This document shows, one piece after another, positions 11,271 to 38,125 of a DNA stretch of 40,701 nt. The stretch spans positions 1-40,701 of the forward strand of contig JAUXAC010000011.1 of NCBI GenBank assembly GCA_030615035.1, written 5' to 3'. This DNA is from Dehalococcoidia bacterium (GTDB taxonomy: Bacteria; Chloroflexota; Dehalococcoidia; Dehalococcoidales; RBG-16-60-22). The notes under the pieces were generated by a model, which ran no database searches, was not told where the DNA came from, and saw only the letters and a list, made by a program, of their open reading frames with translations. A program made the position numbers and the translations under genes. Numbering within the stretch: the first letter of the stretch is position 1; each line of letters starts with the position of its first letter.

Positions 11271-11393
11271 CCTCCTGGCAGTGGCATATTTTCCACAAGG
11301 GGTTACCCCCTCAGTATCGTCTGCGCTGGGGTGTTTCACTTCCGTGTTCGGGATGGTAACGGGTGGTTCCGCCCCGCTCTAACCACCAGGAGG
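11271..11393 (-). rRNA. rrf: 5S ribosomal RNA
   Basis: The ends CCTCCTGG and CCAGGAGG pair as helix I. The minus-strand sequence contains the conserved CCCGAACACGGAAGTGAAAC region (loop B / helix III) and the expected helix IV-V hairpin, in about 123 nucleotides. No 23S or 16S gene lies in the window, so it is a detached 5S gene. A promoter-like site is found 45 bp upstream. Confidence 0.95.
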
Positions 11394-14475: not shown

Positions 14476-14520
14476 GGCACTATGCTGAAATTATTTATTA
14501 CCCCCCCTTAATTTATTTAG

Positions 14521-14670
14521 TAACCCCATCCCCCTTTATCCCCCTCTCCTTGATTCACTTTATTCTGGATTAGAAACGCAGGGTGTTTAAGAGGGGCGTC
14601 AGCCCCTCTTTCTAAAATCTTCCCCCTCTCCTTACCAAGGAGAGGGGGATACAGGGGGTGAGGTCACCAA
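14521..14670. repeat. mosaic hairpin repeat, locus 1
   Basis: Blocks in order: CCCCATCCCCCTTTATCCCC, an AAGAGGGGCGTCAGCCCCTC hairpin, then CCCCCTCTCCTTACCAAGG with its complementary AGAGGGGGAT, ending GGGGGTGAGGTCACC. It lies between the DUF47 promoter and the 3' end of rarA. Two repeat units face each other. Confidence 0.85.
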
Positions 14671-14692
14671 GCAATCTCTTTAGAGACCTGAA

Positions 14693-21614: not shown

Positions 21615-21650
21615 AAAAAGTATTGATAAAAATAGGAATAGTGTTATGGT

Positions 21651-21846
21651 GACCTCACCCCCTGTGTCCCCCTCTCCTTGAAAGGAGAGGGGGATTCATT
21701 TAAAGAAGAGGGGCTAACGCCCCTCTTGAACACCCTTATACTTGACGGAGTAAATATCATAAGGAGAGTCCAAGAGAGGCGAAGCCTCTCTTATATATAA
21801 TTCCCCCTCCCTTGGTGAGGGAGGGGGATAAAGGGGGTGGGTTGCT
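21651..21846. repeat. mosaic hairpin repeat, locus 4
   Basis: GACCTCACCCCCTGTGTCCC, CCCTCTCCTTGAAAGGAGAG hairpin, AAGAGGGGCTAACGCCCCTC hairpin, then GTCCAAGAGAGGCGAAGCCT hairpin and CCCCCTCCC...GAGGGAGGGGG, ending GGGGGTGGGTTGC. It ends about 80 bp before the purM reading frame and fills most of the 312-bp gap. Confidence 0.85.
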
Positions 21847-21926
21847 AAACAATCTCCTTTATATTTGAGTTAAAGCTCGGTTTCTGGTAATCTAAAGAAG
21901 GATATCTTGGCACGGGGGTAAGGCAG

Positions 21927-28521: not shown

Positions 28522-28818
28522 CTAGCTCCGCTTAAACTCTAAACGCAGAACCTGTTTTGTGTCTCGGGTAACCTTTATCCGCTCGTCTATGCGCCAGCCG
28601 ACCACCCACAGGATATGCTCGGGAGAGCAGACGATAGGGATTCTTTCCCGCCAGGCGTGGGGGATCTTGCTGTCAATCATAAACTCATTTAATTTCTTGG
28701 GCTGGCTCATACCCAATGGCTGGAACCTGTCGCCGGGCTTACGAGTGCGCACGGTCAGTTTATTGCCAGCTTTATCCAGGTCAAAGTAGGCAGTAAAGAG
28801 ATTGTCTATCAACCTCAC
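28522..28818 (-). CDS. tilS: TilS C-terminal part (split gene)
   Basis: 98 residues from GTG at 28818 (or the downstream half of a readthrough product). FDLDKAGNKLTVRTRKPGDR, FQPLGMSQPKKLNEFMID and WRERIPIVCSPEHILWVVGW are the TilS C-terminal domain that grips tRNA-Ile. It is in the same frame as the upstream part, separated only by TAG GGG. The repeat supplies GGAGAGGGGG, which could act as a ribosome binding site for the GTG. Expression as a separate chain is therefore possible. Confidence 0.85.
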   Translation of the reverse strand: MRLIDNLFTAYFDLDKAGNKLTVRTRKPGDRFQPLGMSQPKKLNEFMIDSKIPHAWRERIPIVCSPEHILWVVGWRIDERIKVTRDTKQVLRLEFKRS

Positions 28819-29005
28819 CCCCTATATCCCCCTCTCCTTCAAAGGAGAGGGGGAAGGTTTTTGGAAGAGGGGCGAAGCCCCTCTTAGACACCCCGTTAGC
28901 TTAATCGCCTTCAAAGGAGAGGGGGAAGAATAGTTGGTGAAGGGGCGGAGCCCCTTCACGCTTCCCCCGCTCGGGGTAGGGTCCTCGCCCTTCTCGGATT
29001 CCCCT
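28811..29005. repeat. mosaic hairpin repeat, locus 8, inside tilS
   Basis: Both hairpins are present (CCTTCAAAGGAGAGGGGG; GAGGGGCGAAGCCCCTC), plus a second unit with AAGGGGCGGAGCCCCTT. It is read through by tilS as SPSPLKAIKL and PSPSPLKERGI. The consensus GATAAAGGGGGTGAGG is changed here to GATATAGGGGGTGAGG (plus-strand complement CCCCTATATCCCC), which is the in-frame TAG at 28822-28824. The outer boundary near 29005 is approximate. Confidence 0.85.
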
Positions 29006-30135
29006 TTTTGGTCTATAATTGTTGCTTCAATACACCATCCCGGTAGCTGTGTCTCTCCCGGTATCTTCAGGGCAAACTCAGCCTCCAGAATGGGGAAGGG
29101 GGATAAAGCGGCGGGGTCTGAGCCCAGCAGGTATTTATTATATTCTATGGAAAAGGTTAAGCCTTCAGGCAGGCTGATTCTTTTTCCAGCCGGCTTGTTT
29201 AAAGTCGCCATTATTTCTTCAATGTGGCGCGCCTCAATATCCTTAAGATTACCTATCAACTTTTCTATAGAAGCTCGAAGCAGTTGTCGTTTCAGGGCGG
29301 GGGGTAATTGACCAAACCTTTTCTTATCTAAAATAATCGTGTTTTCCTGTTCTTGAGCAACTTCACCCCATAGTCGGGCGACTTCTTTATCCAGAAAGGC
29401 AAGGTCATCAGCCGCAATCCGAGCAGTTCGGAGCAAGGTCTCAGTTACCTGTGGGTTATAGCTCTGGAGCAGCGGCAGGAGCTGCTGACGGATTCTGTTT
29501 CTCAGTGGTGATAGCGATAGGTTAGAGGCATCGATCCGGAACATAAGCTGATGCTGCCGACAATAGCCCTCCGTCTCCTGTCGGCTTATCTGTAGTAGTG
29601 GTCTTATTATAGTGAGGCTATTCCCCAGAGATTGCCACTGGCTCGATGGTTGTAGTCCCCGCAGGCCTCTGGTTCCAGTTCCCCGTATCAGGTGCATCAG
29701 TATGGTTTCTATATGGTCGTCAACAGTATGCCCTGCCGCAGCTCGGTCGGCTCCGATAGAATCAGCGACCTGAGCCAGGAAAGTGTAACGCACCTCACGT
29801 GCAGCTTCCTCCAAGGAAAGACGCTGCCGGGCTTGATAGGCTTTGACATCATACTGTTCTATAGTAGCCGGGGTGTTTAATTGGTTAGCCAGGTCAGCAA
29901 CATACCGGGCATCAGCCTCAGACTCAGCACCTCGCAGCTGGTGGTCAAGGTGAGCCACATGCAGCGTTATGCCCAGTTCCTCTCGCAGCTTAACCAGAAT
30001 ATGGAACAGGCAGACTGAATCCGGGCCACCGGATACAGCCACCACCAGCTTCTGCTGCCCTGATACCAGGTGTTGCTCTTGGATAAAGCGTAGTACTCTC
30101 TGCTCCAGTGTTGCCGGTCTCTTGCTGGTCCCCAA
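28822..30135 (-). CDS. tilS: tRNA(Ile)-lysidine synthase, N-terminal part, interrupted
   Basis: 437 codons before TAG. The PP-loop SGGPDS is at residues 35-40, followed by HVAHLDHQLRGAESEADARY, RLSLEEAAREVRYTFL, HTVDDHIETILMHLIRGTG and NRIRQQLLPLL: a complete catalytic domain for lysidine formation at C34 of tRNA-Ile(CAU). After about residue 370 the family sequence stops, and ~65 residues of repeat-encoded, Pro/Ser/Lys-rich sequence follow to the stop. The true C-terminal domain resumes in the same frame at 28818. Start TTG, with AGAGGGGAAA immediately ahead. Confidence 0.9.
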   Translation of the reverse strand: MGTSKRPATLEQRVLRFIQEQHLVSGQQKLVVAVSGGPDSVCLFHILVKLREELGITLHVAHLDHQLRGAESEADARYVADLANQLNTPATIEQYDVKAYQARQRLSLEEAAREVRYTFLAQVADSIGADRAAAGHTVDDHIETILMHLIRGTGTRGLRGLQPSSQWQSLGNSLTIIRPLLQISRQETEGYCRQHQLMFRIDASNLSLSPLRNRIRQQLLPLLQSYNPQVTETLLRTARIAADDLAFLDKEVARLWGEVAQEQENTIILDKKRFGQLPPALKRQLLRASIEKLIGNLKDIEARHIEEIMATLNKPAGKRISLPEGLTFSIEYNKYLLGSDPAALSPFPILEAEFALKIPGETQLPGWCIEATIIDQKGESEKGEDPTPSGGSVKGLRPFTNYSSPSPLKAIKLTGCLRGASPLFQKPSPSPLKERGI

Positions 30136-32576: not shown

Positions 32577-32770
32577 AACCCCATCCCCATTTTGGTTTTT
32601 ATCAGGTAACCTATCCCCCTGACCCCCTTCCCTTGTTATTGGTTAAGGGAAGGGGGAATTATGGTTTTCGAAGGGGCGTCAGCCCCTTCGAGCTTCCCCA
32701 GAGTGCAGTTAATGAGAGGCTTCGCCCCTCTCCTTTTAAGGAGAGGGGGACCAAGGGGGTGAGGTCAATA
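32577..32770. repeat. mosaic hairpin repeat, locus 10
   Basis: CCCCCTTCCCTTGTTATTGG with GGGAAGGGGG, GAAGGGGCGTCAGCCCCTTC hairpin, AGAGGCTTCGCCCCTCTCC, then AAGGAGAGGGGGACCAAGG and GGTGAGGTC. It occupies most of the space between the CNNM gene and the end of nrdJ. Confidence 0.85.
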
Positions 32771-32775
32771 AAAAA

Positions 32776-36072: not shown

Positions 36073-36289
36073 TCTCACCCCGTTAGGTTTTGATGGTTGT
36101 TGTCACCCTCACCCCCTTTATCCCCCTCTCCCTTGAGGGAGAGGGGGAAGAATATTAGAAGAGGGGCTACGCCCCTCTTAAACGCCCCTATTACCTCAGG
36201 GCAAGGAGAGTTAAAGAGAAGCAAAGCCTCTCTTACACATAATTTCCCATCCCTTATCAAGGGAGGGGGACAAAGTGGGTAAGGTCACC
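36073..36289. repeat. mosaic hairpin repeat, locus 11
   Basis: CTCACCCCCTTTATCCCC, CCCTCTCCCTTGAGGGAGAG hairpin, GAGGGGCTACGCCCCTC hairpin, then AGAGAAGCAAAGCCTCTCT and CCCATCCCTTATCAAGGGAG. It lies in the intergenic region between divergent nrdR and folC. Confidence 0.85.
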
Positions 36290-36320
36290 ATATATCCTAA
36301 GCAGAAGGGGCTGGGGGCAT

Positions 36321-37775: not shown

Positions 37776-38125
37776 GCAACCTATCCCCCTGCCCCCCTTC
37801 CCATTAGGACATTTGGTGACCTCACCTCCTGTGTCCCCCTCTCCTTATCAAGGAGAGGGGGAAGATTTTAAAAAGAGGGGCTGGCGCCCCTCTTAAACAC
37901 TCCCGCATTATTAAATCCAGAGCAAGGGGAGGCGAAGTCCCCCTTAAACTCCCCTCTGAAAAGAGTAAATATAAGGGAGAGTCCAAGAGAGGTGAAGCCT
38001 CTCTTCTAAATCCCTCCCCCTTCCCCTTATCAAGGGGAAGGGGGATAAAGGGGGATGGGGTTACCTATTAAATAACTAAAGGGGGATGGGGTTACCCATT
38101 AAATAACTAAAGGGGGTGAGGTCAA
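37776..38125. repeat. mosaic hairpin repeat, locus 12, with 31-bp tandem duplication
   Basis: Several units: CCTCTCCTTATCAAGGAGAG, GAGGGGCTGGCGCCCCTC, GTCCAAGAGAGGTGAAGCCT, CCCCTTCCCCTTATCAAGGG. At the end are two tandem 31-bp copies (38047-38077 and 38078-38108) beginning AAAGGGGGATGGGGTTACC, differing at one base. It fills the gap between folC and ribD; no gene is seen there. Confidence 0.85.

What the first reader, a model, noticed from the sequence alone, without database searches (positions are those of the whole stretch)
28522..30135. A mobile repeat is translated inside tilS, and a single substitution within it now splits the gene
Seen: the catalytic TilS part runs in frame into ~65 codons of the same repeat found between other genes, hits TAG, and the true TilS C-terminal domain resumes in the same frame two codons later. 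Other copies read GATAAAGGGGGTGAGG; here GATATAGGGGGTGAGG makes the stop. With the usual base the frame would be open through the whole element, so the original insertion was coding-compatible, as with the palindromic elements of Rickettsia. TilS is normally essential, so either two chains are made (the repeat offers GGAGAGGGGG before a GTG), the TAG is read through, or the assembly has an error at this base.
Basis: partly seen in the sequence, partly recalled or inferred. Interest (0 to 1): 0.82.

Follow-up and report, generated by a model that had tools for sequence, protein, structure and literature searches.

The report
Mobile repeat splits essential tilS gene
A small repeated DNA element of an environmental bacterium has been taken up into the protein sequence of a key tRNA-modifying enzyme, at a surface loop where relatives gain and lose the same element again and again, and in this strain a stop codon inside it appears to have turned the one-piece enzyme into two pieces.

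Summary
In a Dehalococcoidia-like metagenome contig, tilS is read in frame through a partial and a full copy of a ~103-nt two-hairpin repeat, meets TAG, and continues in the same frame from GTG as a 98-residue ORF. The stop is probably real: a 412-aa N part (P0001) and a 98-aa C part (P0125), each 96% identical, come from ENA contigs both 1,867 bp long and end and start at the same points, around one repeat copy. The repeat occurs in 113 of 156 genomes of the order. The tilS turn is the only place inside a gene where I found it convincingly; there its presence changes at least 14 times on a tree of 89 tilS genes. The 88 relatives examined are open from N to C. The turn lies inside CTD2, so chain 1 holds all that a type II TilS has. 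Best reading: an RPE/MITE-like element lands repeatedly in a tolerant loop; here it supplies a stop and a nearby start and makes a two-piece TilS. That both chains are made or needed is inferred.

The parts
28822..30135 (-). tilS N part, 437 aa: PP-loop catalytic domain, CTD1, first strands of CTD2, then 62 repeat-derived residues (376-437)
   Evidence: domain limits by analogy with the L013 model
28905..28967 (-). first, partial copy of the repeat (HMM positions 5-66), translated
   Evidence: 29.0 bits; P0001 has only one copy
28794..28897 (-). second, full copy of the repeat (HMM positions 2-104, 94.2 bits), translated up to the stop; its right end spans VRLIDN of the C part
28829..28852 (-). 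hairpin 2 of the repeat, ending 4 nt before the TAG; holds AAGGAG in its 3' arm
   Evidence: RNA fold of 28790-28970, z -5.9
28822..28824 (-). in-frame TAG stop inside the repeat
28828..28837 (-). purine-rich GGAGAGGGGG, 9 nt before the GTG (possible ribosome binding site; inferred)
28522..28818 (-). C part: 98-aa ORF from GTG, rest of TilS CTD2 (TIGR02433, PF11734)
   Evidence: close twin P0125
28401..28492 (-). separate intergenic copy of the same repeat, downstream of tilS
   Evidence: 70.5 bits

Best explanation
A two-hairpin mobile repeat (about 103 nt, MITE/RPE-like) of this order repeatedly enters, and is lost from, one surface turn inside the CTD2 domain of TilS, where it is translated in frame as a disordered loop. 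In the window's lineage a stop codon has arisen inside the translated repeat, and the repeat also carries a purine-rich stretch and a GTG just after it. tilS is therefore expressed as two pieces: chain 1 (catalytic domain, CTD1, first CTD2 strands, repeat tail), which has all parts of a natural type II TilS, and chain 2 (the rest of CTD2), made by termination and reinitiation at the GTG 3 nt after the TAG and probably packing back onto chain 1. SHOWN by sequence or model: repeat in frame, stop, both ORFs open, a twin pair of ORFs in the databases, repeated presence and absence in relatives, position within CTD2. INFERRED: mobility, reinitiation, assembly of the two chains, activity.
For: Split and domains. 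Twin: P0001 (412 aa, ends ...SPSPLKERGI) and P0125 (98 aa, starts MRLIDN), both from ENA contigs of 1,867 bp, each 96% identical to the window's; that they are one contig is inferred from the equal length. N and C parts differ at about the same rate (4 of 98 residues in C; 96% identity in N). Window C dN/dS against 13 genomes 0.05-0.18, mean of 55 intact pairs 0.159; many dS values are near or above 1. Gain and loss: 19 of 87 tilS carry repeat residues, some of them short remnants; at least 14 changes on the tree, while 100 shuffles of the labels need 14-19, mean 17.5. At least two reading frames. Location: turn 367-378 between strands 359-366 and 379-383 of a model with pLDDT 90.3; CTD2 spans 341-468 by match to 3hj7, while Aquifex TilS matches 1-329. 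Insert disordered in P0002 (pLDDT under 50 at 382-421). Need for the enzyme: AUA is 213 of 679 Ile codons and occurs in 26 of 26 genes. Passages of PMC12514573: type II TilS lack CTD2 and are about 30% of TilS.
Against: No expression data. Passages of PMC12514573 say CTD2 residues are essential in a type I enzyme, so splitting CTD2 could harm. P0125 has lysine in place of a nearly invariant arginine (GDRF), a possible hint of relaxed constraint on C. No other genome is seen to have this split, though only 88 were examined whole; 17 rows have C frames under 400 codons, and I looked into three of those genomes only (G071, G041, G047). AAGGAG lies 15 nt from the GTG, long for a ribosome binding site. 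As I read the peptides, all tilS copies have one orientation, and scoring the two frames apart adds no change on the genome tree: both fit shared descent and exchange between alleles as well as many fresh insertions.
Confidence: 0.55

Rival explanations
1. Chain 1 alone does the work as a type II-like TilS; the C ORF is an untranslated or idle relic of recent origin.
For: Chain 1 holds the region that matches the whole Aquifex TilS (model 1-329); type II enzymes without CTD2 are common (passages of PMC12514573). P0125 has a change at a nearly invariant position.
Against: The C ORF is open in window and P0125, keeps the same start, and diverges no faster than N. The split may be too young for decay to show.
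Confidence: 0.28
2. Read-through of the TAG makes one long chain.
For: The frame is the same on both sides.
Against: TAG is an ordinary stop here: 9 of 29 ORFs end with it. Only tRNA-Lys(TTT) is found in the window; suppressor tRNAs elsewhere could not be checked.
Confidence: 0.06
3. Assembly or base error, or a chimera of strains joined at the repeat.
For: Repeats break assemblies: in G041 tilS is cut by contig ends (N hit at C4:1-1176; C hit at C1:2-292). N and C identities are out of step between close relatives, e.g. P0002-P0003 97.3% and 88.2%, as chimeras or recombination would give.
Against: P0001 and P0125 show the same end and start with a different number of repeat copies.
Confidence: 0.06
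4. tilS is dead here and AUA is read some other way, or an intact tilS lies elsewhere in the genome.
For: The window's genome is not held, so a second gene cannot be excluded.
Against: AUA is used in 26 of 26 genes; both parts keep low dN/dS; of 140 genomes of the order with a C-part hit, 136 have a single one.
Confidence: 0.05

Closest known systems
Rickettsia palindromic elements (RPE) and Wolbachia palindromic elements
   Same: 100-150 bp palindromic repeats, some translated in frame inside conserved proteins at exposed sites; for RPE-4, -6 and -7 the same site can hold different elements in different species (passages of PMC3767692; PMC2229807).
   Different: Other phylum; here one site in one gene takes the in-gene copies found, with at least 14 presence changes, and a copy splits the gene. 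RPE are reported in 19 reading frames (passage of PMC2229807).
GTAG/CGTC REPs with in-gene copies (PMC3733652)
   Same: Palindromic repeats, present in Chloroflexi among others; some lie in ORFs, GTAG REP ends often give TAG stops to flanking ORFs, and in some species a single gene is hit (passages).
   Different: The consensus here (103 nt, two hairpins) holds neither tag.
Bacterial MITEs that carry ORFs (Correia/NEMIS 107 bp, ERIC/RU-1)
   Same: Small, hairpin-rich, open frames fused in frame to genes (passages of PMC2229807).
   Different: Terminal repeats, target duplication and a transposase partner are not established here.
Type II TilS (Aquifex aeolicus)
   Same: Chain 1 covers the whole of it, by analogy with the L013 model.
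   Different: Chain 1 has extra CTD2 strands and a repeat tail, and the rest of CTD2 is kept as an ORF next door.

Membership tests
TilS | catalytic domain above curated cut-off | tested here: met
   TIGR02432 190.5 bits against cut-off 93.6
TilS type I | CTD2 on the same chain | tested here: not met
   TAG at 28824-28822; TIGR02433 and PF11734 hits lie in the next ORF
TilS type II | no CTD2 at all | tested here: not met
   chain 1 keeps the first CTD2 strands; the rest of CTD2 is an open ORF
Rickettsia palindromic element | palindromic repeat of about 100-150 bp in many copies | tested here: met
   103-position HMM, 20 merged copies in the window, 43 in 800 kb of G040; fold z -5.9
Rickettsia palindromic element | in-frame copies in many different genes | tested here: not met
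   only tilS is convincing among the copies examined
Rickettsia palindromic element | inserted residues at an exposed site | tested here: met
   turn between two strands; insert disordered; exposure itself was not computed
Rickettsia palindromic element | sequence related to an RPE family, host in Rickettsiales | not tested
   no RPE sequences were compared; nearest named genomes are Dehalococcoidia
GTAG/CGTC REP | GTAG or CGTC at one end | tested here: not met
   absent from the HMM consensus
MITE | terminal inverted repeats and target-site duplication | tested here: inconclusive
   copies often lie in tail-to-tail pairs with right ends outward; a TTTAC stretch on both sides of the insert in L001, L009 and L019 fits a duplication; no statistics

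The most novel reading that the evidence does not exclude
The repeat's right end is a portable stop/ribosome-site/start module: the turn of TilS is a standing landing pad where it first lengthens an essential enzyme and then, by one stop codon, converts it into an obligate two-chain enzyme that is inherited as such. The stand-alone second CTD2 ORF in G071, which starts at a repeat right end, would be a second product of the same module, made by recombination at the repeat.
Probability: 0.3. Interest if true: 0.82.

Novelty: new variant of a known kind. Interest (0 to 1): 0.62.

Why it matters
Translated palindromic repeats are best known from Rickettsia, where the authors of one genome paper lean to common origin for shared sites but do not exclude hotspots (passages of PMC3767692). 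Here one site in one essential gene offers some 95 filled and 113 empty alleles, in at least two frames, so the question can be tested. The split allele shows a path by which selfish DNA could turn a one-chain essential enzyme into a two-chain one without loss of the gene, and it is a natural test of how far CTD2 of TilS must be joined to the rest.

Tried and rejected
Own genome: not held, so a second tilS, suppressor tRNAs and copy counts of this strain could not be checked. Genome-contig scan with the N part: 3 loci, of which L002 (Crocinitomicaceae) was dropped. Protein search with only the repeat residues 376-437: 10 hits at E up to 10, all TilS by Pfam domain, among 64 candidates of about 240-765 aa; it needs shared 5-residue words, so frames unlike the query's are missed. 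The model of P0002 had a poor CTD2 (pLDDT under 50 at 436-491); the model of an empty relative (L013) was used instead. P0133 looked like another split C part, but matches the second copy 2 kb downstream of an intact tilS in G071 (contig length 12,375 in both). Other stand-alone C ORFs that begin MRL or MGL (P0129, P0135, P0138, P0139, P0142, P0164, P0188) may be splits or fragments of short contigs; not resolved. Papers: the titles and abstract starts listed show no paper on this repeat or on a split tilS; the library lacks most subscription papers; PMC186582 and PMC11947777 are not held. Passages were seen of PMC12514573, PMC3767692, PMC2635572, PMC2229807, PMC3733652, PMC3120642 and PMC4227106; no paper was read whole.

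Labels came from a hand-made pattern; at least P0067 was wrongly called empty there, and P0035 and L025 may be remnants; L025 was set to present by hand. L029 and L047 were left out of the counts as unassignable, L090 because its CTD frame is disturbed, P0121 (290 aa) from the tree because it is short, and P0001 because it has no C part. The database proteins are the 120 listed of 6,067 hits plus three. In one search some loci overlap (L007 and L139), so a few copies are counted twice, and its 40 sampled sites are the best repeat hits, not a random draw.

Full report
The window is a 40.7-kb contig with 49% G+C. Its TilS is nearest, among named genomes, to a Dehalococcoidia MAG (L001, 72% identity). 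No whole genome is held for it.

Observation. tilS lies on the minus strand. The N part (30135-28822, 437 aa) matches TIGR02432, PF01171 and PF09179; after TAG and one codon the C part (28818-28522, 98 aa, GTG start) matches TIGR02433 and PF11734 in the same frame. Residues 376-437 are translated repeat: an HMM of 103 positions, built from window and G040 copies, finds one partial copy at 28967-28905 and one full copy at 28897-28794, both in tilS sense. The palindrome at its heart is found at 8 places in the window and in none of 100 shuffles. The insert folds far better than shuffles as RNA (z -5.9).

Is the stop real? The best hit of the N part is P0001, 412 aa, 96% identical, which ends at the same ...SPSPLKERGI but with a single repeat copy. 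The best foreign hit of the C part is P0125, 98 aa, 96% identical, which starts MRLIDN as here. Both are from ENA contigs of 1,867 bp, so I take them to be one contig; this is inferred, and the contig itself was not seen. The window's own C ORF (P0124) stands for 17 member sequences; what those are was not seen. TAG is an ordinary stop in this window: 9 of 29 ORFs. Among 12 window copies found with a strict pattern only the tilS copy has this reading; in G040 2 of 15 have a TAG in the corresponding frame, in 40 other loci 0 of 38. The stop is thus probably an inherited feature of at least two strains.

Relatives. TilS of the order was searched in 156 genomes; 143 match. I fetched the better-ranked part: of 96 loci, 5 lacked N or C, and L002 (other phylum), L004 (duplicate) and L090 (CTD frame disturbed) were set aside, which left 88. 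All 88 run from N to C in frame without a stop; only the window has one. Linkers called empty are 7-18 codons long; in the genomes repeat-bearing ones reach 54 (L010, L024), and 68 in the window. Among 210 rows (88 genomes, the window and 121 database proteins, which are biased towards the window), 95 were called repeat-bearing, 113 empty and 2 unassigned, by a hand-made pattern that missed at least P0067. The repeat is read in at least two frames (compare ...SPSPLKERGIKGVRLIDN with ...LPPPFPREGDKGGGLPNN) and, as I read the peptides, in one orientation. Presence changes at least 31 times on that tree (FastTree; 70 of 205 inner branches weakly supported) and at least 14 times on the tree of 89 genome rows, where 19 of 87 are filled, the window and short remnants (such as L008, L014, L025, L033) included; shuffled labels give 14-19, mean 17.5; scoring frames apart also gives 14. 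Close relatives differ: P0005 (frame 1) sits in a 99% set with P0002 (frame 2) and with P0003 and P0007, which keep only the ends of the insert. In L001, L009 and L019 a TTTAC stretch stands on both sides of the insert, as a target duplication would. N and C identities are out of step between close relatives, so exchange between alleles, or chimeric assembly, may add to the turnover.

Elsewhere in the genome. The repeat is found in 113 of 156 genomes. In 800 kb of G040, 43 merged copies: one lies in an open frame with 30 or more codons on both sides, a 143-codon frame with a run of N. In the window, 18 of 20 merged copies lie between the main ORFs and two are in tilS. In 133 further loci with 109 merged copies, 14 copies lie in tilS and 11 in other open frames with 25 or more codons on both sides. 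Ten of these 11 were scanned with Pfam (the eleventh, in L139, is the same sequence as in L007): nine have no domain, and in L160 a methyltransferase domain starts at residue 99 or later, downstream of the repeat (residues about 45-76), so the repeat may precede the gene's true start. The test asks for an open frame, so copies that wreck a gene are not counted. A protein search with the repeat residues alone found TilS only.

Function. AUA makes 213 of 679 Ile codons and is present in 26 of 26 genes examined, so lysidine, or a substitute, is needed. Window C part: dN/dS 0.05-0.18 against 13 genomes, as for N (0.13-0.20) and as for 55 intact pairs (means 0.159 C, 0.171 N). These values mostly reflect time before the split, and many dS are near or above 1. 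Between the window and P0001/P0125 both parts differ by about 4%, with no excess in C, although one of the four C changes hits a nearly invariant arginine. The likeliest mechanism is translational coupling: ribosomes that reach the TAG have opened hairpin 2, which frees the purine-rich stretch, and reinitiate at the GTG 3 nt on. That is inference. Chain 1 alone, as a type II-like enzyme, is the main rival.

A second product. G071 has an intact repeat-bearing tilS and, about 2 kb on, a second stand-alone CTD2 ORF of 98 aa that starts GTG at a repeat right end; 268 nt are 95.5% identical from about that point, and dN/dS of the two copies is 0.17. The repeat thus seems also to have served as a recombination joint and, again, to hold the start.

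Known kinds. By passages read, RPE do the same in Rickettsia genes, and for RPE-4, -6 and -7 common origin is favoured but hotspots are not excluded (PMC3767692); a guanylate kinase with an RPE insert is active (PMC2229807); GTAG REPs can give TAG stops, and in some species a single gene is hit (PMC3733652). This is therefore a new variant of a known kind: it works like an RPE, but is not shown to be one.

Noticed in passing
L177:3893-4189 (G071:C27): Second, stand-alone TilS CTD2 ORF about 2 kb downstream of an intact tilS, starting at a repeat right end, after two other ORFs, the first of them sigma-factor-like by my reading.
   Followed up: partly
window 14514-14681, 21639-21859, 32601-32775, 36095-36298, 37805-38065: Repeat copies often stand in tail-to-tail pairs with their GGTGAGGT ends outward, as a composite unit with terminal inverted repeats would.
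   Followed up: no
L160 (G041:C33): A repeat copy runs in open frame into the 5' end of a methyltransferase ORF; it may supply or precede the start.
   Followed up: partly
G106 contigs C31 and C53: Two tilS-like loci in one genome bin, the one on C31 hit in separate pieces.
   Followed up: no
G047:C7 (L090): tilS with a disturbed frame in the CTD, apparently unrelated to the repeat.
   Followed up: no
L047 (G005) linker: A 58-residue charged insert at the same turn that does not resemble the repeat over most of its length.
   Followed up: no
window 11273-11390 (-): 5S rRNA gene upstream of an ORF that reads like clpC (my reading); no 16S or 23S match at Rfam's threshold in the window.
   Followed up: no
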